Positions 9,092-24,861 of a DNA stretch of 24,861 nt are shown here, piece by piece. Made by a program: the position numbers and the translations under genes. How positions within the stretch are numbered: position 1 is the stretch's first letter; every line of letters begins with the position of its first letter. Source of the DNA: a virus; the IMG/VR virus record IMGVR_UViG_3300020160_000662, positions 1 through 24,861 of that record. One strand, 5' to 3'. Under the pieces are notes generated by a model. The model was not told the DNA's origin. It made no database searches and saw only the letters and a program-made list of their open reading frames with translations.

Positions 9092-12000
9092 TTACGCCCT
9101 CCGAAGCGCCATCGTGATCGCCGCCCAACTGTCTGCCGTCGCCGACGATCCTGTCGAAGACGCGGCAGGGTCGAGCGCGCCAGACGTCCAAGCGTATGTA
9201 GCAATCGACGCCTGTCCGTCGACTGTCGCGACGCCGATTGACTGAAGCAAGTTCGTCGAGCTTGCGAAGGTGAAGTTCGCGCCGGTTGCGGCTGCGCCAG
9301 CCGTGCCGACGACGACAACGGAACCGCGCGTAACCGGCGTGATTGCGGGCGGGTTCGGGCGCGATGTGTTGTTGCCGACCGCAAACGTCGCGGCGACTTC
9401 CATCGGCGTTTCGGGGTTTACCTCCCTGTATACGTGGATCGCATACGCGCCGCCGTTCGCGGCTGCGCCTGTAGCGTTGAGCCTGACGTTTGCATCAGGC
9501 GTCGCGGGCATAAATTTGTAGCCCATGAGAAGCATAGCGTCGTTATTGTCAGAGCCGTTGCGCTGCGCTCCGCTGACAACCGTATAAGCGACCGCACTCG
9601 GGTCGGTGATCGCAAGCGTTTGCGAACCAGAGACGCCGACGCCATAGACGACGACAACGAAGTCGCCAGCCTGAACGCCAGCGTTCGCGCCGCCCACGCC
9701 GCCATTGAAGCCGCTGCTAAGCGGGACGTCGGTATTCGTCGCCGTCGAAGGCGTGACGGTTCCGGTCTTGCCGCCGACATAAGATATCGTTGATTTGACC
9801 GCCCGCGCGCTGACGGTTGCGTCCGCAAGCGTGACCGCAAGCGCGCCAGTGTTCGCGACCGCGTTGACCGTTCCCGACGCTGATACGGTCGCGTCCGCTG
9901 CGGTTATCGCAAGATCGCCCGCGTTGCGTTGGTATCCATCGGCGGCGACGGTCGGCCCCGCCAACGTTGCAGCGCCCGCCCCTTGGATCGTTGGCGTTCC
10001 TGTAGCGGACAGGGAGCCGACTGCGACCGTCATCGCGCCCGCGCCTGCGTTGCGCTGATAGCCCTCGCCGACGACCGAAGCCCCGACGAGCGATGGCGCC
10101 AGCGTGGCGACGATGCGCGGCGATCCTGCGCCCGCCACTGTCGCGCCCGCCATCGTTTGCGCGAGCGCGCCCGCGTTGCGCTGATAGCCGTCTGCCGTGA
10201 TGGTCGAAGGCGTGAGCGTCGAAGCCGAAGCGCCAGTGACAACCGGCGAGCCCGCCCCGGTTACGGTTGCGCTCGTTAGCGTTGCAGCGCCCGCGCCTGC
10301 GTTGCGCTGATACCCGGCCCCCGCGACGCTATCCCCGGCGAGCGTTACGGCCCCCGCGCCCTGAAGAACGCCCGAAGAGCTTGCGACAAGCGTCGCGCTG
10401 TCGAGGGTGATTGCAAGCGCGCCGATGTTCCGCTGATAGCCCGCGCCCGCGACTGCTGACGCCGTCAGCGTCGCCGCGACTGCGCCCGTCACGATGGGCG
10501 AGCCCGCGCCCGTCATCGTCGAAGGCGTCAGCGAGCTTGCGAGCGCGCCCGCGTTGCGCTGATAGCCCGCCCCGGCCACGGTCGCCCCGACCAGCGTCGA
10601 CGCGCCCGCGCCAACGATGCGAGGCGATCCGGCTGCGGCGACGGTTGCGCCCGCTGCGGTGATTGCGAGCGCGCCCGCGTTCCGTTGGTAGCCGTCCGCG
10701 ATAAGCGTTCCGCCGACAAGCGTCGCCGACAATTGACCGGGGTTCGTAATGGTTCCGTTCGATTGTGCGATCGCATGGTCAAGCGTGATCGCCCCCGACC
10801 CTTGAACGCTGCTCGAAGAGCTTGCGAATAGCGTCGCGCTGGCGAGCGTGATCGATGCCGCGCCCGCGTTCCGCTGATAGCCCGCGCCAGCGACCGTCGA
10901 CGTCGCCAGCGTCGCCGCGCCCGCGCCGACGATCCTTGGCGTTCCTGTAGCGACGACACTCGCCCCGGCAAGCGTGACAGCCGTCGCGCCCACGTTCCGC
11001 TGATAGCCCGCCCCGGCCACGGTCGGCCCGGCGAGGGTTTGCGCCAGCGCGCCCGCCACAACCGGCGAGCCCACCGCCGCGATCGACGCGCTGGCGAGGG
11101 TGAAGGCCCCCGCGCCTGCGTTTCGTTGGTAGCCCGCCCCGGCCACGATCGCGCCCGCGAGGGATGCCGCCCCAGCGCCGACGATCCTTGGCGATCCAGA
11201 GCCCGTCAGGGAGCTTGCGACGAGCGAGGCAGTCAGCGCCCCGGCGTTCCGCTGATACCCATCAGCGGCCACGCCTGCCCCGGCGAGGGTGATCGCGGCG
11301 CTTGCCAAGGCGGAGCCCGCCGCGCCCCCGGATACAGTCGCCCCGGCGAGGGTGATCGCCAGAGCGCCCGCGTTGCGCTGATATCCGTCGCCGACCGAAG
11401 CCGCCCCGGCCAAGATAGGCGCAGAAACGCCTAGGATCGTCGGGGATGCGGTTCCGGCCAGAGTTGCGCCACTGAGCGCCAAAGTCGCCGCGCCCCCTAT
11501 GACGGGGCTCCCTAGGCTCGCCAGCGACGCCCCGGCCAAGGCGACAACCGAATCGCCTTCGATTTTCGGCGATCCTGCCCCGGCCAGCGACGCCCCGGCC
11601 AGCGTGACAGCGCCAGTCGAAAGGATCGTCGCCCGCCCGATCGCGGTAAGGGTCGCGCCGCCCAGCGTGACCGCTAGCGAGCCCGTTCGACCGATTGTCG
11701 GGATCGCGCCCGGCGTCGCCCGCCCGTCGAAGGTCGCGCCAGCCGGATCGCTCATCACTTCGACGAACGTCCACGCCTTGCCATCGATAACGAGAATGTC
11801 GCCCCCTTCCGGCGCTCTTCCGGGGATCGTCACGGCGAGGATCATCGCGCGCCGATCCTTCGCGGGGATATCGTCAACGCCGCGTTGGAAATCCGTATAA
11901 TCGACGATCAACGCCTTGCAGGAAATTTCCGCGTAGGTTGCGACCGTGCCGCCCCGGCCATCCGCGACGCGCTCCGTCGCGCTGTAAAAGATCGCGTCTT

Positions 12001-12424
12001 CGAAAAGCGTCGCCCCCATCGCGCCACCGATCGTCGCCGGAACGCCATCGAGCAAGCTTGAAACGTTCGGCGCTGTCGTGTCGCCTGATGGCATCGGCGC
12101 GCGTGTCGCGCGCGCTTCGTATTGCGCATTCGCCGGATCGGATCGAACGGACAGGATTGCCCACGCCTTGCCGTCGAGAACCAGCACGTCGCCCGCTTCC
12201 GGTTTTTGCGTGACGGTCGCGGCGAGAATAAGCGCGTTTCGTTCGGATGACGGAAGCCCGCCGTCCGCACGCTGACGATCGGTGAATTCGACGACAAGCG
12301 CGCGGCAAGGGAGGCGGATTGCGCCGCCACCTGTCCAGCCGCCGCGACCGTCAGACGATCGCGGCGCTTTCGCGTGAAGCGTCGCCGAACGGAAGAGGCT
12401 TTGCCCCATCGCGTCGGCGATCAA
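9092..12424 (-). CDS. Giant neck protein: tandem connector domains, repeat shaft and C-terminal beta-rich domain
   Basis: The 1110-residue product sits in the head-closure position. Residues 1-108 and 122-240 are two related domains: MGQSLFRSATL aligns with MGATLFEDAIF, SDGRGGW with ADGRGGT, CRALVVEFTDRQR with CKALIVDYTDFQR, and VLDGKAWAI with VIDGKAWTF. They resemble phage head-closure (FII-like) proteins, normally about 110 residues alone. Residues 248-876 are Ala/Gly/Thr-rich repeats of 21 residues. Residues 877-1110 form a distinct beta-rich C-terminus (AGDFVVVVYGVGVSG, GGAYAIHVYREV, SWAAITMALRR) of jelly-roll or lectin-like appearance. TTG 12424 is the first conventional start, but the reading frame is open and homologous to domain 2 upstream to about 12451. 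I infer a connector-anchored neck fibre or adhesin; the domains were not confirmed by search. Confidence 0.8.
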   Translation of the reverse strand: MIADAMGQSLFRSATLHAKAPRSSDGRGGWTGGGAIRLPCRALVVEFTDRQRADGGLPSSERNALILAATVTQKPEAGDVLVLDGKAWAILSVRSDPANAQYEARATRAPMPSGDTTAPNVSSLLDGVPATIGGAMGATLFEDAIFYSATERVADGRGGTVATYAEISCKALIVDYTDFQRGVDDIPAKDRRAMILAVTIPGRAPEGGDILVIDGKAWTFVEVMSDPAGATFDGRATPGAIPTIGRTGSLAVTLGGATLTAIGRATILSTGAVTLAGASLAGAGSPKIEGDSVVALAGASLASLGSPVIGGAATLALSGATLAGTASPTILGVSAPILAGAASVGDGYQRNAGALAITLAGATVSGGAAGSALASAAITLAGAGVAADGYQRNAGALTASLVASSLTGSGSPRIVGAGAASLAGAIVAGAGYQRNAGAGAFTLASASIAAVGSPVVAGALAQTLAGPTVAGAGYQRNVGATAVTLAGASVVATGTPRIVGAGAATLATSTVAGAGYQRNAGAASITLASATLFASSSSSVQGSGAITLDHAIAQSNGTITNPGQLSATLVGGTLIADGYQRNAGALAITAAGATVAAAGSPRIVGAGASTLVGATVAGAGYQRNAGALASSLTPSTMTGAGSPIVTGAVAATLTASAVAGAGYQRNIGALAITLDSATLVASSSGVLQGAGAVTLAGDSVAGAGYQRNAGAGAATLTSATVTGAGSPVVTGASASTLTPSTITADGYQRNAGALAQTMAGATVAGAGSPRIVATLAPSLVGASVVGEGYQRNAGAGAMTVAVGSLSATGTPTIQGAGAATLAGPTVAADGYQRNAGDLAITAADATVSASGTVNAVANTGALAVTLADATVSARAVKSTISYVGGKTGTVTPSTATNTDVPLSSGFNGGVGGANAGVQAGDFVVVVYGVGVSGSQTLAITDPSAVAYTVVSGAQRNGSDNNDAMLLMGYKFMPATPDANVRLNATGAAANGGAYAIHVYREVNPETPMEVAATFAVGNNTSRPNPPAITPVTRGSVVVVGTAGAAATGANFTFASSTNLLQSIGVATVDGQASIATYAWTSGALDPAASSTGSSATADSWAAITMALRRA
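9797..11683 (-). repeat. About thirty 63-bp coding repeats, many paired as 126-bp units
   Basis: The repeat encodes 21-residue units of the form GALAITLAGATVAGAG plus a loop of SPRIV or YQRNA. The two loops alternate, giving a 42-residue higher unit. GYQRN occurs 12 times, starting at residues 347, 389, 431, 473, 515, 578, 620, 662, 704, 746, 788 and 830. All intervals are 42 except the fifth, which is 63 (three half-units). The first four or five units use only the SP-type loop. All differences are multiples of 21 residues, so units can be gained or lost without breaking the frame. Confidence 0.93.
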
Positions 12425-18852: not shown

Positions 18853-19317
18853 TTAGTCGCGTGAGGGTGCAGGCCACGCGCCGAATGAAGTCGTTCCCTT
18901 GATCGCTAGACGCCAATGCCAGTCGGTTCGGATAAGCAATCGCGCCGTCATGTCTTCGCTATGGCATCCGACAAACCGGATCGTCACGCCGTGCTGTACA
19001 TTCAACTTGTGCATAACGCGGTTTTCAAGGTCTTCGCACATATCGTTCGCCGAAACCCATTTGATCGACTTCGTTTCCGCGATCGCTTCATGCGCGGCCC
19101 GGCTCAATCCCTCGAAGCTCTTGTCAGGCCCTCGAAGAACCTCACGCAAGCGACTGAACACGCCCGGCCCCTTCGCAACCGTTTCAGCGCGAGCCGCATC
19201 AGCGGCCACGCTGGCGCGTCGCGCGGCCTCTTCGTTTTCGATCTTCATCCGCTCTTTCGGCGTTAGCGGCTTCGAGAGTTCAAGCGGCGGCGTCGGCGTC
19301 TTGGTCGCGGGTTTCAT
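18853..19317 (-). CDS. Unknown protein downstream of portal, 154 aa
   Basis: I do not recognise a family. ATG 19317 overlaps the portal stop by ATGA. The first 60 residues are Pro/Lys-rich then Ala/Arg/Glu-rich and probably helical (KERMKIENEEAARRASVAAD). The middle has FSRLREVLRGPDKSFEGLSR, and the C-terminal half is a compact alpha/beta region with KWVSANDMCEDLENRVMHKL, VTIRFVGCHSEDMTARLLIR and a Trp-rich end. The portal-coupled position suggests a head-assembly or connector accessory, but no motif confirms this. Confidence 0.7.
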   Translation of the reverse strand: MKPATKTPTPPLELSKPLTPKERMKIENEEAARRASVAADAARAETVAKGPGVFSRLREVLRGPDKSFEGLSRAAHEAIAETKSIKWVSANDMCEDLENRVMHKLNVQHGVTIRFVGCHSEDMTARLLIRTDWHWRLAIKGTTSFGAWPAPSRD

Positions 19318-20858
19318 GCGGCCTCGCTTTCGGCGTCAGGGGGAATAGGCGGGTCCATATTCGGCATGCCCGGAACCGTGACGGGCAGGCCGGTAAGCGG
19401 GTCGGTTGTGATCGCAGGCCCTTCCGCCTCTAGCTCGGCTTCGTTCGCCTCGGCGTCGAAGTCGCCGTCGAGAATTCCTTCGCTCTGCATTTGTCTGATG
19501 AAGGAAGGGCGAGACAGGTCGCCGCCGTTGCGCATGCCCTGCAGCGCCGTGACGCGAACCTGATCGACCGTGTTGATGCCGAATTCCGTGTTAGGCGCGA
19601 AGCTCGTTTCGGGCGGCTCGCGACGTTTCCAGATCGACAGGAATTCGACCGCGATATCGAGCGCAAGGCCAAGCGCGATAGACCATGATTGAAGGGAAGA
19701 GTTCGCCTTGTTCTGTCCAAGCGCATCCTTCGTCGCCGTCACGCCTGCCTGTTGCCGCATCAGCGGTTGATATGCCAAAATCGACATATCCTTTTCGAGC
19801 CGGTCTAGGTCTTTCTCGCCCGCCGCGATCGCCGTTCCCTGCGGCTCGATATAATAAAACTTCGACTGTGCATCGCGCGAAAACATTGTGACGTTAGGCC
19901 CGATGACGTTTTTCCCGTCAGCCCCTTTCGCCAGTTCGTCGCTGTCGACGCCAGCGCCGCCAAGCATGGGGAAGCGCGACACGGTGAGGATGGCGCGTTG
20001 ATCGGATGACGACTGCCAGTGTTCAACGTTCTTTTCGGCGAGCCCGTTCAGCGGCGGAAGCAAGCGGCCATAACTGTCGACGTTGCCGATCCGATATCGG
20101 GTGATCGGCAAAATCGGTTTGCCCTCCCATGCGATATCGAGAAAGCCTTCGGCGTCCGACCATGTTTCGGCTCCGTCGTCGCGCTCATATCGCCGCCACA
20201 CGGCGACGCCGTCTTCGATACGCCACTCGAAGACGCGTTCGACCATGTAATCGCCGAAGTCTTCCTCGGCTTCGATCCACTCGGTTTCATACCATCGCGC
20301 GTATGTGCAGAACACGCGACCGCCGCGCTTCGTCACTTTGAAGTCGAGCATATTATCGGCGCTGATAAGCGAGAGGTAAGGACGACCGCCGCCGATCGTG
20401 CGCCGTACATCAGCGAGCGAAATCGGCTTGCCTTCCTCGGTCGGCTTCGGCAATTCCGGCGCGTCGCAAATCACATAGACTTCGCCTTTCGCCATCGCGA
20501 GCGCGAGCATTTGTTTTGCGAAATGTTGAATGTCGTTTCCTTCGACGTCCACTTCGGCGAGCATGTCTTGCAAGTCGTCGTCGATCTTGTCCGACCATTT
20601 CATCGGCGAGCTAAAGACGGTGTCCGTCAGGTTCTCGACCGACTGCGCGAAGACGGGCAAGAGAAACGATCGCGAGAGGCGCTTCGCGTATTCTTCATCG
20701 TCTTCGTTTTTGTGCTGCGGCAGGAATTCGCTTCCCGCATCCCGCATCGCCTCTGATCCACCCATCAGCGCGTCGGCCAACGCCCAGCGCGAAACCATCA
20801 TGTCGGCGTAAGCCGATCGGGTCTTCGGGTCTTTCAATGTCGATTTGACTTCGGCCAT
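19314..20858 (-). CDS. Portal protein (DUF4055-like)
   Basis: The product is 514 residues from ATG 20858 (MAEVKSTLKD). A TTG at 20873 would add five residues but has no ribosome site, so it is not preferred. The sequence has MGGSEAMRDAGSEFLPQHKN near residues 33-52, EYAKRLSRSFLLPVFAQSVE, LTDTVFSSPM, GGRPYLSLISADNMLDFKV and a long C-terminal helical region with MRQQAGVTATKDALGQNKAN. This order matches the DUF4055 group of phage portals. The portal ring occupies one capsid vertex, docks terminase and the adaptor, and is the gate for DNA. The acidic C-terminus is common in portals. It is followed by an overlapping unknown gene and then MuF, a usual portal-MuF succession. Confidence 0.9.
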   Translation of the reverse strand: MAEVKSTLKDPKTRSAYADMMVSRWALADALMGGSEAMRDAGSEFLPQHKNEDDEEYAKRLSRSFLLPVFAQSVENLTDTVFSSPMKWSDKIDDDLQDMLAEVDVEGNDIQHFAKQMLALAMAKGEVYVICDAPELPKPTEEGKPISLADVRRTIGGGRPYLSLISADNMLDFKVTKRGGRVFCTYARWYETEWIEAEEDFGDYMVERVFEWRIEDGVAVWRRYERDDGAETWSDAEGFLDIAWEGKPILPITRYRIGNVDSYGRLLPPLNGLAEKNVEHWQSSSDQRAILTVSRFPMLGGAGVDSDELAKGADGKNVIGPNVTMFSRDAQSKFYYIEPQGTAIAAGEKDLDRLEKDMSILAYQPLMRQQAGVTATKDALGQNKANSSLQSWSIALGLALDIAVEFLSIWKRREPPETSFAPNTEFGINTVDQVRVTALQGMRNGGDLSRPSFIRQMQSEGILDGDFDAEANEAELEAEGPAITTDPLTGLPVTVPGMPNMDPPIPPDAESEAA

Positions 20859-21426: not shown

Positions 21427-22980
21427 CTACATTTTTCCAAGCATCAAGCCTCTGCGCTCGGCAAGGCATCGATATCGAATGGGATCATACGCGTGATCTT
21501 CCCCGTCGCTGTCAACGTCGTCGGGTTTCTTTTCGTCGCGCTGCAGCTTCGGAACCGTTCGTATGATGTGCTTACAGGTGGAGAACACGAACAGGCCCGG
21601 CGCTTCCATCGGATTGCCCTCGCCGAAGGCTTCGGATGAAACCATTCTATCGATCACATTCTTCGCGCCAGTGATGCGCGAGCCCGGCGATTTGTCGGCT
21701 TCGTCGAAGTCGACAAGCTCGCTTCGATACGTGTCGATAATCGCCTTGCCTTGGGGCGCGTTAAAGATTTGCGTATCGGCAGGCCCGCGCATGACGCGGA
21801 CGCCGTGAACGTTCTGAACCGTTCGATCCATCGCTTTAATGTCGCGCGCGATTTCGCCGTCAGTGTCGCGACGCCCTTTGTTCGGTTCGCCGTTCCATCC
21901 ATAGATTTCGGCGATGCAAAACAGCGTCCCGCGCGGGAAGCGATACCAAACGCCCTTATCTATTTCGACGTCGCTTCCGTCGCTTTCCGCGAACCAGATC
22001 GTGCAATGCGGCGACGCCGCTCCCCAATCATGCGCGCGATCGACGCGCCAGTGTGACGGGATAAGAAACGGCTTGATGACGTGCGTGTCGTTCGACCATA
22101 CGCCAGAGAAGAAACCGCCAACCGACAAATCCCATCGGCCTTCGATCCACGCCGCGCGCTTGGCCTTGTCGCTTGGCATGATGCGGGCGAGGTATGACGG
22201 ATCGGCCTTCATCATGTGATCGTTGTCGCGGAAGTCCAAGCGAACATGCGTGCGCGTAATTTTGAACGTCTCGCGATGCGTGCCGAAATCGATTTCGCGC
22301 GCTTCATCGATCATTTGCATTTGCGCGCCTGCGTCGATGAACCTTTCTTTCACCCACCATGCGCCCGGCCCCCAAGGGTTAGTCGCCGATCGCACGCGCG
22401 GACGAACCAGCGGGTTCGAAGATCGCACGCAAGAAATGATATCGAAGTATAGGCCCGGCTCATGCCAGTTGCACAATTCGTCGAAGCCCAGCCACGGCCA
22501 CTCTTGCCCTAGGTATTGCGAAATGTCTTCGGGGCGCTTCGCGTGACGAAACAGAAGCTTCGCGCCATCGGGAAACGTCCAGCCTAGCGCGTCGGCGCTC
22601 GCATGAAACTTCGCGCCGGGGATCAATTGTGGAATGCGCTTTTTTGAACGCTCAACAATGTCGGCGAGGTCTTTGTATTCGCGACGAAGGATAAGACCGC
22701 GCCAATCGCCTTTCGCGCCCTTGCCCACATCGTTGCAGAAATCCGCCAGAAGCCAATCCGACTTGCCGCCGCCGCGATTTCCCCACGCGAGCATTTCGAA
22801 CGCGGGCGACGCCATCAAGAAATTTTGGATGAAGGTCGGACGCCATGCTTCGGGAACGATGACGCCTGTCGGCGTTTTGTAATAGGTCTTGAGCGCGTCG
22901 GCCTTGGCTTCCTCGGCCTTCGCGTTCGGCGGAACGATCTTCGTCGTCTGCTGTGATTTGAATTTAGCCCAAGGCGTCAC
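21427..22980 (-). CDS. terL: Terminase large subunit
   Basis: The 517-residue motor-nuclease packages DNA into the prohead. The ATPase part has a Walker A-type GNRGGGKS at residues 67-74, a Walker B WLGFDEL at 163-169 with the catalytic acidic pair, and a coupling motif SATNPWG at 198-204. The C-terminal nuclease part begins near 313 with VDRAHDWGAASPHCTIWF, where Asp318 is a likely metal ligand of the RNase H-like fold. It starts at GTG 22980, overlapping the small subunit stop as GTGA, so the two subunits are coupled. The length is normal. I do not assign it to cos or pac type from sequence alone. Confidence 0.95.
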   Translation of the reverse strand: MTPWAKFKSQQTTKIVPPNAKAEEAKADALKTYYKTPTGVIVPEAWRPTFIQNFLMASPAFEMLAWGNRGGGKSDWLLADFCNDVGKGAKGDWRGLILRREYKDLADIVERSKKRIPQLIPGAKFHASADALGWTFPDGAKLLFRHAKRPEDISQYLGQEWPWLGFDELCNWHEPGLYFDIISCVRSSNPLVRPRVRSATNPWGPGAWWVKERFIDAGAQMQMIDEAREIDFGTHRETFKITRTHVRLDFRDNDHMMKADPSYLARIMPSDKAKRAAWIEGRWDLSVGGFFSGVWSNDTHVIKPFLIPSHWRVDRAHDWGAASPHCTIWFAESDGSDVEIDKGVWYRFPRGTLFCIAEIYGWNGEPNKGRRDTDGEIARDIKAMDRTVQNVHGVRVMRGPADTQIFNAPQGKAIIDTYRSELVDFDEADKSPGSRITGAKNVIDRMVSSEAFGEGNPMEAPGLFVFSTCKHIIRTVPKLQRDEKKPDDVDSDGEDHAYDPIRYRCLAERRGLMLGKM

Positions 22981-23618
22981 AACGCCTTACCCTCGATAAG
23001 ACCCTTGTCCATCTTCGCGCGCTCTTCGGCGATCTTGCGCGCCTGCTCTTCCCACTCTTCGCGAGAGGCGACAGGCGTTCGAACGAAAACGGCTTGCTCA
23101 ATGTTGAACGTGTCGCCCTTGTCGCTTGGCATCTTCGTCAATTGGAAAACTTCGGCGAGCTTGAAAAGCGCCGCCTGACGATCCGCGATTTCGATCGCGA
23201 GCGAGTTCGACTTCCCCCAAGTTCGGGTAATTTTCTTGACGCGCCGCCGAAGCTCTTCGGGGAGTTCGGCGCTGTCTTTCAGGTCGACGCTGTTGCCCGT
23301 CCATCTCGCGAAATCGCCCATTGATGTTCGGGCGTCTTGCGCGAGTTCGTCGACGATCCACGCTTTCGTTAGTCCCGTGCGTTGCGTGGTAAGCTCGGCG
23401 ACTGCCTCGGCGATGTTAGCATTTCTTAGCAGGCGATGGGCTTCGACATACGCGCCGCTTTCCGCGTATCCGGCCCGGATCGCGGCTGCGCCGCCGTTCA
23501 AGTCGATCATGTATTCTTCGACGAAACGCCTTTGCTTGCCTTTCAAGGCATCAAATTTCGGCGTCTTCGATTTCTCTTCGGGCGGGCTTCCCGCTACCGG
23601 CGCGACTGCTGTCGTCAT
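22977..23618 (-). CDS. terS: Terminase small subunit (Terminase_2-like)
   Basis: The product is 213 residues from ATG 23618, preceded by GAGAAGC. A TTG at 23681 would add a non-conserved leader and is not preferred. The DNA-binding N-terminal domain carries KGKQRRFVEEYMIDLNGGAA followed by AIRAGYAESGAYVEAHRLLR and NANIAEAVAEL, the Terminase_2 signature of a helix-turn-helix that recognises the packaging site. The middle is helical and basic (LRRRVKKITRTWG). The C-terminal section has EEWEEQARKIAEERAKMDKG, likely contacting the large subunit. The inverted repeats directly upstream (23643-23719) are candidate recognition sequences. Confidence 0.93.
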   Translation of the reverse strand: MTTAVAPVAGSPPEEKSKTPKFDALKGKQRRFVEEYMIDLNGGAAAIRAGYAESGAYVEAHRLLRNANIAEAVAELTTQRTGLTKAWIVDELAQDARTSMGDFARWTGNSVDLKDSAELPEELRRRVKKITRTWGKSNSLAIEIADRQAALFKLAEVFQLTKMPSDKGDTFNIEQAVFVRTPVASREEWEEQARKIAEERAKMDKGLIEGKAL

Positions 23619-23754: not shown

Positions 23755-24024
23755 TCACGCCTGCGAATGATCTTCGTCGATCGGCCTGCCGTTCTGAAAA
23801 TGCCGCTCAATGGCTTCTGGCGCGGGCGCTGGCGCTGTTGCGGCTTGCTCCGCTGCCTCGATAGCGGACAGGGCGAGTTCGCTATCGGCGAGCGCCCTAG
23901 CGAGCGCGTTTTCGATCCGCACGCCCTCGGCTTTGTGGGCGAGGCGTTTCAGTGTGAGCGATGCAATGGCCGCGTTTGCGTCCATGTAAAGCTTTCGGCT
24001 TTTCGTCAGGTCTTCGGTTGTCAT
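23755..24024 (-). CDS. Small helical protein between regulator and terminase, 89 aa
   Basis: The product has no recognised family. It begins MTTEDLTKSRKLYMDANAAI and is almost wholly helical, with a possible coiled coil from about residue 15 to 65 rich in Ala/Leu/Glu, then a Pro/Ala linker (ATAPAPAPEAIE) and a charged tail. AGGGG stands seven bases before the ATG, and the start lies eight bases after the regulator stop, so the two genes form one unit. It could be a packaging accessory or a partner of the regulator. Confidence 0.7.
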   Translation of the reverse strand: MTTEDLTKSRKLYMDANAAIASLTLKRLAHKAEGVRIENALARALADSELALSAIEAAEQAATAPAPAPEAIERHFQNGRPIDEDHSQA

Positions 24025-24032
24025 ATCGGCCC

Positions 24033-24635
24033 CTATGCTGCCCGCTCGCCGAACACGTCGGCGAGCCGTTCAATTCGTTTTGCGCGCTTGATCGGTTCAG
24101 GCTGATAAGCCTCGCGCGCGTGAGCCGCGCAATAGCTGCTCCCCTCGCGCCTGTCGCATCCGCAGAACCCGAACGTCGACGCCTTGGGATCGCCTATAGG
24201 CCAGCGACACGAACGCGCTGTGAGCCCATCCAGCGACGCGCCCGGCAATGGAATGATTTTGTCGATCGCCGTCGAAAGCGTTTCAGCCTTGCGCGATCGC
24301 GACGGGAAGTTTTTCGCGTTGATGTGCTGCGATGCGCGCTCGCGCCGAACGCTTGCAGGCATCGCCTCGCGAATGCCTAGCCGGTGAATTTTTCCGATGA
24401 TCGAATTTCGCGTTCGATATTTTATCTTCCGCTGTATCTGCCCGTAAGACAAACCCTTGGCGACCGCATCGCGAAGGGCGACCGTCTCGGCTTCGGTCCA
24501 CGGCCTTTCCCGCGCCTGCGGTATCGGTTCGGGTTTCTTCGGCGGCGCTTGCCGAACAGGGATCGCCTTGGCTGTCGGCGAGCGGACAGGGGCGATTGCG
24601 TGTTGCCTCATCGCACGCGGGCTCCCGGCTCGCAT
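24033..24635 (-). CDS. gcrA-like: GcrA-family cell-cycle-type transcription regulator
   Basis: The 200-residue product contains both GcrA signatures. A helix-turn-helix at about 44-88 has PWTEAETVALRDAVAKGLSY and YRTRNSIIGKIHRLGIRE. The C-terminal sigma70-binding region at about 142-177 has RSCRWPIGDPKASTFGFCGC and GSSYCAAHAREAY. In Caulobacter, GcrA binds sigma70-RNA polymerase and acts at promoters with methylated GANTC. Here the domain is preceded by about 40 basic, Pro-rich residues not usual in the host protein. The ATG at 24635 is used; ATG 24611 would give 192 residues and overlaps the 62-aa frame by ATGA. As the first gene of the leftward block, it may switch on late genes or change host cell-cycle transcription; both are inferences. 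Confidence 0.9.
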   Translation of the reverse strand: MRAGSPRAMRQHAIAPVRSPTAKAIPVRQAPPKKPEPIPQARERPWTEAETVALRDAVAKGLSYGQIQRKIKYRTRNSIIGKIHRLGIREAMPASVRRERASQHINAKNFPSRSRKAETLSTAIDKIIPLPGASLDGLTARSCRWPIGDPKASTFGFCGCDRREGSSYCAAHAREAYQPEPIKRAKRIERLADVFGERAA

Positions 24636-24796
24636 GCGCTTTCCGGTTTGAGCCGGTGAAATTGGTAAGTCTGCAATGCCCGCTCCCGCTTTTGCGGGGC
24701 GTCGTCCAGCCGTCGAAAGTTCAGGTCGCGGCCAATTGCTAACCCGAACCCAAATCGGGGCGCAAGCCCCAATCTAATTTCATACGGAATTAGCAT
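24608..24796 (-). CDS. Doubtful 62-aa frame in the gcrA-like leader
   Basis: The frame begins MLIPYEIRLGLAPRFGFGLA and ends with an ATGA overlap onto ATG 24611 of the regulator, which would fit a coupled leader peptide. Against it, there is no good ribosome site, its start lies inside the inverted repeat at 24795-24814, and the RNA folds into several hairpins. The sequence has no recognisable domain. Confidence 0.25.
   Translation of the reverse strand: MLIPYEIRLGLAPRFGFGLAIGRDLNFRRLDDAPQKRERALQTYQFHRLKPESACEPGARVR
24643..24770. other. Three small hairpins in the leader of the gcrA-like gene
   Basis: CCGG stems at 24643-24656, CCCGC-TTTT-GCGGG at 24685-24698 and GGGGC-GCAA-GCCCC at 24757-24770 follow one another. 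They could form a structured 5' leader of the leftward transcript. On the plus strand the last one is followed by AATCTAATTT and could weakly terminate rightward transcription. Confidence 0.4.
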
Positions 24797-24814
24797 TGCT
24801 CAATTTTGAGCAAT
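24795..24814. promoter_or_regulatory. Perfect 8-bp inverted repeat in AT-rich DNA, likely operator
   Basis: ATTGCTCA and TGAGCAAT face each other across ATTT, an architecture suited to a dimeric repressor. It lies in the only AT-rich stretch of the window (about 24780-24861), which also holds TATATA-like -10 sequences on both strands and a GGGTAT/ATACCC pair at 24833-24859. A TTGAGC at 24806 with TATAGG 17 bases later could be a rightward promoter. The exact promoter cannot be fixed by eye. Confidence 0.55.
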
Positions 24815-24861
24815 TCCAAATTTGTTTATATAGGGTATGCCCCAAATATCTATATACCCCC

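What the first reader, a model, noticed from the sequence alone, without database searches (positions are those of the whole stretch)
24033..24635. Phage-borne GcrA at the head of the packaging and structural block, with no GANTC near its promoter
Both GcrA signatures (helix-turn-helix and C-terminal Cys-rich CRWPIGDP region) are intact, with an added basic Pro-rich N-terminus. No GANTC is seen in its leader or the intergenic gaps. If the protein works like host GcrA, its targets should be host promoters, or it acts on phage promoters without methylation through sigma70. Its place before terS suggests a late activator.
Basis: partly seen in the sequence, partly recalled or inferred. Interest (0 to 1): 0.6.

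Follow-up and report, generated by a model that had tools for sequence, protein, structure and literature searches.

The report
Phage GcrA in a GANTC-free genome
A phage of (most likely) an alphaproteobacterium carries an intact copy of GcrA, the bacterial regulator that reads methylated GANTC sites, although its own genome has been swept almost completely clean of GANTC, so if the protein reads that mark at all it must read it on the host's DNA.

Summary
The gene is real. 24033-24635(-) is a Pfam GcrA protein (106.6 bits, cut-off 26.9) whose two domains model onto C. crescentus GcrA's DNA-binding and sigma70-binding domains. Every residue invariant across 49 GcrA proteins is kept. "No GANTC near its promoter" is true but is not a promoter property. 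The whole 24,861-b window has one GANTC (48.8 expected with protein and codon usage fixed), and a 59-kb relative with the same gcrA-ORF-terS-terL order has none (85 expected in 36 kb of its coding DNA). Serine after Asp/Glu is written AGY in 69 of 70 cases. Erasure and gcrA are not strictly linked: most gcrA-carrying phages show only host-like depletion (median O/E 0.58), pelagiphage HTVC011P is purged without gcrA, and this phage also avoids CCWGG and other palindromes. Restriction evasion is therefore a sufficient cause. "Late activator" is not supported: gcrA's leader carries the palindrome-promoter element that precedes about ten small genes in the relative's non-structural region. Best reading: a host-directed sigma70/GcrA co-activator made with the small takeover genes, unable to dock on GANTC in phage DNA. 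Phage GcrA (phiCbK) and GANTC depletion (pelagiphages) were each known; I found no report of them together.

The parts
24033..24635 (-). gcrA, 200 aa as listed; probable true start ATG at 24611 (192 aa)
   Evidence: PF07750 106.6 bits, cut-off 26.9; relative's ATG aligns with Met9
24513..24635 (-). basic Pro-rich N-terminal extension (residues 1-41)
   Evidence: conserved in the relative G001; other phage and host GcrAs in A1 start near Trp46
24369..24512 (-). DNA-binding domain, residues 42-89, recognition helix TRNSIIGKIHRLG
   Evidence: model matches 5yiv, GcrA DBD on methylated DNA, TMt 0.93, rmsd 0.8
24078..24239 (-). sigma70-interacting domain, residues 133-186, with invariant C143, W145, P146, G148, D149, P150, C158, Y168, C169, H172
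   Evidence: model matches 5yix TMt 0.89, rmsd 1.1, 51% identity; invariant columns
24796..24813 (-). perfect palindrome TTGCTCAAAATTGAGCAA upstream of gcrA, candidate operator
   Evidence: conserved in G001 at 62-79; about ten more copies at G001 49.0-53.7 kb
24787..24795 (-). extended -10-like TGCTAATTC directly after the palindrome
   Evidence: same position as TGnTATAAA after the repeated palindromes of G001; promoter activity inferred
24608..24796 (-). possible small ORF (62 aa) ending inside the start of gcrA; uncertain
   Evidence: core FGLAI.RDLN...QKRERAL also open in G001; its ATG lies in the presumed promoter, so the start is doubtful
23755..24024 (-). 89-aa ORF between gcrA and terS, no family match
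22977..23618 (-). terminase small subunit
   Evidence: PF03592 E=1.4e-26; 57% identical in G001/G002
21427..22980 (-). terminase large subunit
   Evidence: phrog_979 E=3e-22
19314..20858 (-). portal protein
   Evidence: phrog_145 E=1.5e-85, PF13264
14522..15565 (-). major capsid protein
   Evidence: phrog_247 E=1e-91
11550..11554 (.). the only GANTC (GAATC) in the window

Best explanation
The protein is a phage-encoded GcrA. SHOWN: both functional domains and all invariant residues are present; the phage genome, and that of a 59-kb relative, has been purged of GANTC at nucleotide level; gcrA's leader shares a palindrome-promoter element with a small-gene array of the relative. INFERRED: after infection the phage makes GcrA together with its small takeover genes. 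The C-terminal domain docks on host sigma70 and the DNA-binding domain directs the holoenzyme to methylated GANTC promoters, which exist only on the host chromosome. This boosts host replication and cell-cycle genes (the class controlled by host GcrA), while phage DNA neither binds host CcrM nor titrates GcrA. The purge itself is most simply explained by evasion of GANTC-directed restriction, or of another GANTC-directed host activity, and was probably not caused by the gcrA gene.
For: PF07750. DBD fold match to 5yiv and SID fold match to 5yix. Invariant residues kept; SID departs from the >=60% consensus at one residue only. GANTC 1 vs 48.8 in the window; 0 in 59,145 b of G001, 0 vs 85.4 in its coding DNA. 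Ser after Asp/Glu is AGY 43/43 and 26/27 against about 26% elsewhere; ANT is never used in ..G ANx C.. contexts. Shared palindrome plus TGn-TA element. In C. crescentus GcrA is a sigma70 cofactor at methylated promoters (PMC7403470). phiCbK's GcrA was proposed to switch on host replication genes (PMC3556154).
Against: No binding or expression data. In Brevundimonas many methylated GANTC sites are not bound, and what governs GcrA binding is unclear (PMC7987155), so GANTC-free phage promoters could still be affected through sigma70. The early timing of the small-gene array is inferred from gene content, not measured. The DBD departs from consensus at several core positions (W58V, A68Q). The host is unknown.
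Confidence: 0.5

Rival explanations
1. The GANTC purge is restriction evasion only, and gcrA is an unrelated passenger gene acting on the host or on nothing. The phage avoids several restriction-type palindromes because its hosts carry such systems.
For: CCWGG 0 vs 50, and CGGCCG, GCCGGC, CCGCGG, GGCGCC also nearly absent. Purge without gcrA in pelagiphage HTVC011P: GANTC 1/59.5, no GcrA by HMM. Pelagiphage clades with GANTC depletion are published (PMC9516812). gcrA-carrying phages with normal or host-like GANTC are the majority.
Against: CcrM homologues were found next to an endonuclease only outside the Alphaproteobacteria (PMC3973325). In the relative L013 and the gcrA-carrying record G005 GANTC is the one palindrome erased (0/26 and 0/30) while CCWGG is normal. 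GANTC is also the most depleted palindrome in G010 and G006.
Confidence: 0.5
2. Phage GcrA acts on phage promoters through sigma70 without methylation, as a general holoenzyme activator of phage transcription.
For: [quoted passage not shown] The phage keeps the gene in a GANTC-free genome, and the sigma-binding domain is the better conserved half.
Against: The m6A-reading helix is also conserved (TRNxxIGKxHRLG), which would not be needed. In C. crescentus activation was found at methylated promoters.
Confidence: 0.22
3. Phage GcrA competes with host GcrA for sigma70 and methylated promoters and so shuts down or freezes the host cell cycle (dominant negative).
For: Divergent N-terminal extension and linker; 40% identity to host GcrA in the alignment.
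Against: No lost domain; nothing in the sequence points to inactivity.
Confidence: 0.15
4. Late-gene activator of the packaging and structural block.
For: gcrA stands first in the block in the window, G001 and G002.
Against: Its leader carries the promoter-like element of the small-gene array, which was not found in front of the other structural genes. gcrA sits in the DNA-metabolism region in phiCbK and G010. No GANTC exists for it to read in the block.
Confidence: 0.07

Closest known systems
Caulobacter crescentus GcrA (PDB 5yiu/5yiv/5yix/7ye1)
   Same: Both domains with matching predicted folds (TMt 0.93 and 0.89), same recognition helix pattern, same C-terminal CxWPIGDP...FCG...YCxxHAR core
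   Different: Phage-borne; N-terminal extension of 37-45 aa; about 40% identical in the alignment; genome without GANTC
phiCbK gp222 and relatives (Dolichocephalovirinae GcrA)
   Same: Phage-encoded GcrA, proposed host cell-cycle take-over (PMC3556154)
   Different: 28% identical to the window protein; gene in the DNA-metabolism region; GANTC merely depleted (O/E 0.47, 42 sites in 50 kb)
GANTC-depleted pelagiphages such as HTVC011P (PMC9516812)
   Same: GANTC nearly absent genome-wide (1 in 39 kb), CCWGG absent
   Different: No gcrA; SAR11 podovirus
Pseudomonas YuA/M6-like siphophages
   Same: Portal 34% identical, homologous capsid and head genes
   Different: Different hosts; more distant capsid homologues from other hosts have near-normal GANTC, median O/E 0.91

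Membership tests
GcrA (PF07750) | profile match over the curated cut-off | tested here: met
   106.6 bits vs 26.9
GcrA (PF07750) | N-terminal DNA-binding domain with the methyl-DNA-reading helix | tested here: met
   fold match to 5yiv, TMt 0.93, 41% identity; TRNSIIGKIHRLG
GcrA (PF07750) | C-terminal sigma70-interacting domain | tested here: met
   fold match to 5yix, TMt 0.89, 51% identity; invariant residues kept; individual contact residues not available
GcrA (PF07750) | binds sigma70 domain 2 and activates m6A-GANTC promoters | not testable with these tools
   needs biochemistry
Restriction-site avoidance | motif depleted beyond protein and codon constraints | tested here: met
   GANTC 1 vs 48.8 in the window, 0 vs 85.4 in G001; CCWGG 0 vs 50.3 and 0 vs 75.1
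Restriction-site avoidance | a host restriction enzyme for that motif | not testable with these tools
   host unknown; no close prophage in GTDB
gcrA-linked GANTC erasure | carriage of gcrA predicts erasure | tested here: not met
   71 gcrA+ loci of 8 kb or more: median O/E 0.58, only 5.6% below 0.15; 21 gcrA- alphaproteobacterial (pro)phages median 0.71, none below 0.15, p=0.024, confounded; purge without gcrA in HTVC011P
Late activator | expressed or placed to act on the late operon | tested here: inconclusive
   adjacent to terS, but promoter element shared with the small-gene array

The most novel reading that the evidence does not exclude
The phage has erased GANTC from its own genome so that GcrA (its own copy and the host's) and CcrM act on the host chromosome only. 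It would be a regulator aimed by an epigenetic mark that the virus has made itself unable to bear, with erasure recurring in unrelated gcrA-carrying phages (window clade, G005, L189).
Probability: 0.18. Interest if true: 0.75.

Novelty: new variant of a known kind. Interest (0 to 1): 0.5.

Why it matters
Phage GcrA homologues have been noted since 2012 without a known target. A phage that carries an intact GcrA but has no GANTC makes the question clean: any methylation-dependent effect must fall on the host chromosome. It also supplies a natural test of why phages of CcrM-bearing hosts lose GANTC, since relatives with and without other erased palindromes, and with and without gcrA, are now named.

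Tried and rejected
1) Link between gcrA and GANTC erasure: rejected as a rule (HTVC011P). 2) Local loss at the promoter: rejected, since the loss is genome-wide. 3) Codon or amino-acid composition as the cause: rejected by codon-preserving shuffles and by serine-codon choice. 4) Host-like depletion as the cause: insufficient, because alphaproteobacterial genomes are only about 2-fold low (PMC3973325). 5) Erasure as a side effect of CCWGG avoidance: rejected by L013 and G005. 6) Host identification through capsid homologues in GTDB genomes: none closer than about 40%, mostly other phyla and classes. 7) GcrA alignment scan of viral contigs failed (no conserved stretch) and was replaced by a CxWPxGDP DNA pattern. 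8) The GANTC pattern was too short for the whole-record search, so counts were made on fetched stretches. 10) The palindrome as a widespread phage element: rejected, only G001 and its sister metagenome have several copies in IMG/VR.

Full report
CHECK OF THE OBSERVATION. The ORF 24033-24635(-) is a GcrA: PF07750, E=2.1e-30, 106.6 bits against a cut-off of 26.9. By sequence the best solved relative is C. crescentus GcrA, 7ye1. It heads a minus-strand run: gcrA, an 89-aa ORF, terS, terL, portal, head morphogenesis, scaffold, major capsid, then tail genes. The N-terminal basic Pro-rich stretch is real. In the relative G001 (IMGVR_UViG_3300017722_002103, 59,145 b) it is conserved, but that gene starts at the codon that aligns with Met9 here, so 24611 is the likelier start.

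THE MISSING GANTC IS GENOME-WIDE. The window has one GANTC (11550); dinucleotide shuffles give 147.7 +/- 11.8, maximal-order Markov 52 and codon-preserving shuffles of 24 coding sequences 48.8 +/- 5.8. G001 has none in 59,145 b and the near-identical-family record G002 none in 23,705 b; codon-preserving expectation for 35.6 kb of G001 coding DNA is 85.4 +/- 6.8. Selection acted on nucleotides: serine after Asp or Glu is AGY in 43/43 (G001) and 26/27 (window) cases, against about 26% AGY elsewhere (Fisher 3e-24 and 7.5e-14), and in ..G ANx C.. contexts the ANT codons are never used. The finding's 'no GANTC near the promoter' therefore says nothing about this promoter.

WHAT ELSE IS ERASED. CCWGG is also absent (0 vs 50.3 in the window, 0 vs 75.1 in G001 coding DNA), and CGGCCG, GCCGGC, CCGCGG and GGCGCC are nearly so; GATC is over-represented. 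This is the pattern of restriction-site avoidance. In L013, a third member of the clade (terL 70%, portal 60%, capsid 64% identical), GANTC is absent (0/26) while CCWGG is not depleted (54/38), so the GANTC loss stands apart. L013 ends inside terS, so whether it has gcrA is unknown.

IS IT TIED TO gcrA? In 71 such loci of 8 kb or more the median GANTC O/E is 0.58; 21 gcrA-negative alphaproteobacterial phages and prophages give 0.71 with none below 0.15 (p=0.024, but a small and mixed sample, largely prophages); 59 capsid homologues of mostly other hosts give 0.91. Named gcrA phages give 0.47-0.83. Alphaproteobacterial genomes themselves are at least 2-fold low (PMC3973325), so most gcrA phages look host-like. 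Total erasure beside gcrA occurs in the window clade, G005 (15 kb, 0/30) and L189 (14 kb, 0/23). The latter two matched the window only through GcrA at 28-32% identity in the set of window proteins tested. HTVC011P is erased without gcrA (1/59.5). Hence gcrA neither requires nor is required for erasure.

THE PROTEIN. Across 49 GcrAs C143, W145, P146, G148, D149, P150, C158, Y168, C169, H172 and A176 are invariant and W46, R76, G81, K82, R85 nearly so; the window protein has them all. In the sigma-interacting domain it departs from the 60% consensus at one residue only (S167), in the DNA-binding domain at seven. The AlphaFold model (mean pLDDT 77.7, both domains above 90; linker and N-terminus low) matches 5yiv (DBD on methylated DNA, TMt 0.93, rmsd 0.8) and 5yix (SID with sigma70, TMt 0.89, rmsd 1.1). 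The four residues C143, C158, C169 and H172 would suit a metal site; this is inference. Contact residues from the original structure paper could not be read.

PROMOTER AND TIMING. Upstream of gcrA lies a perfect palindrome TTGCTCAAAATTGAGCAA (24796-24813), followed by TGCTAATTC. G001 has TCGCTCAAATTTGAGCAA then TGGTATTTC at the same place, in an otherwise diverged leader. G001 carries about ten more copies at 49.0-53.7 kb, several of the form TTGCTCAATTYTGAGCAT-GCTATAAAACGGTTTCATC, in front of small ORFs beyond the primase and helicase genes; about 0.4 such sites (4 or fewer mismatches) are expected by chance. No copy with 3 or fewer mismatches lies elsewhere in the window. In IMG/VR several copies occur only in this clade. 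gcrA thus appears to be read from the same promoter class as the small-gene array, which I take to be early or takeover genes (inference). In phiCbK and in the capsid-related record G010, gcrA lies among DNA-metabolism genes. I find no support for a late activator.

MECHANISM. Most likely, phage GcrA rides host sigma70-RNAP to methylated GANTC promoters of the host. Since phage DNA has at most one GANTC, any methylation-dependent action must be on the host. Shown: domains, conservation, erasure, shared promoter element. Inferred: expression time, sigma70 binding, methyl-DNA reading, benefit. The erasure is sufficiently explained by restriction evasion, although CcrM homologues are orphan in Alphaproteobacteria (PMC3973325) and no host enzyme could be named. 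A direct link between erasure and GcrA is the most novel reading not excluded.

COMPARISON. Phage GcrA: phiCbK (PMC3556154); its role in ending a lytic deferment was suggested (PMC9437464). GANTC depletion: pelagiphage clades (PMC9516812). No paper in the held library was found that joins the two; subscription papers are not held. The host is inferred to be alphaproteobacterial from gcrA itself; no close prophage was found in GTDB genomes.

Noticed in passing
window 24857-24861; L006:1-22: The window and G001 both end at a G run followed by TATA, about 220-250 b upstream of gcrA (18 Gs in G001). It may be a hard-to-sequence homopolymer, a genome end or an artefact.
   Followed up: partly
G001 49066-53596 (L008:9066-13596): About ten near-identical promoter cassettes (palindrome, TATAAA, CATCAGGAACGAAGGAAC leader) in front of small ORFs.
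   Followed up: partly
window whole; L006-L008: CCWGG is completely absent and GCCGGC, CCGCGG, CGGCCG nearly so, while GATC, CGATCG and AAGCTT are over-represented.
   Followed up: partly
Many of these, notably those of about 53% GC, also lack CCWGG.
   Followed up: partly
L311:13964-17202: In record G010 gcrA lies next to proteins that look like DNA methyltransferases (832 aa with a C-terminal methylase-like part; 247 aa cytosine type) and a DnaB-like helicase. Judged by eye only.
   Followed up: no
L070, L072: Two short capsid-homologous contigs (36% identity) also nearly lack GANTC (0/16, 1/21); gcrA status unknown because the contigs are short.
   Followed up: no
window 9192-12424: Very long repetitive ORF with many repeats of GYQRNAGA type.
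   Followed up: no
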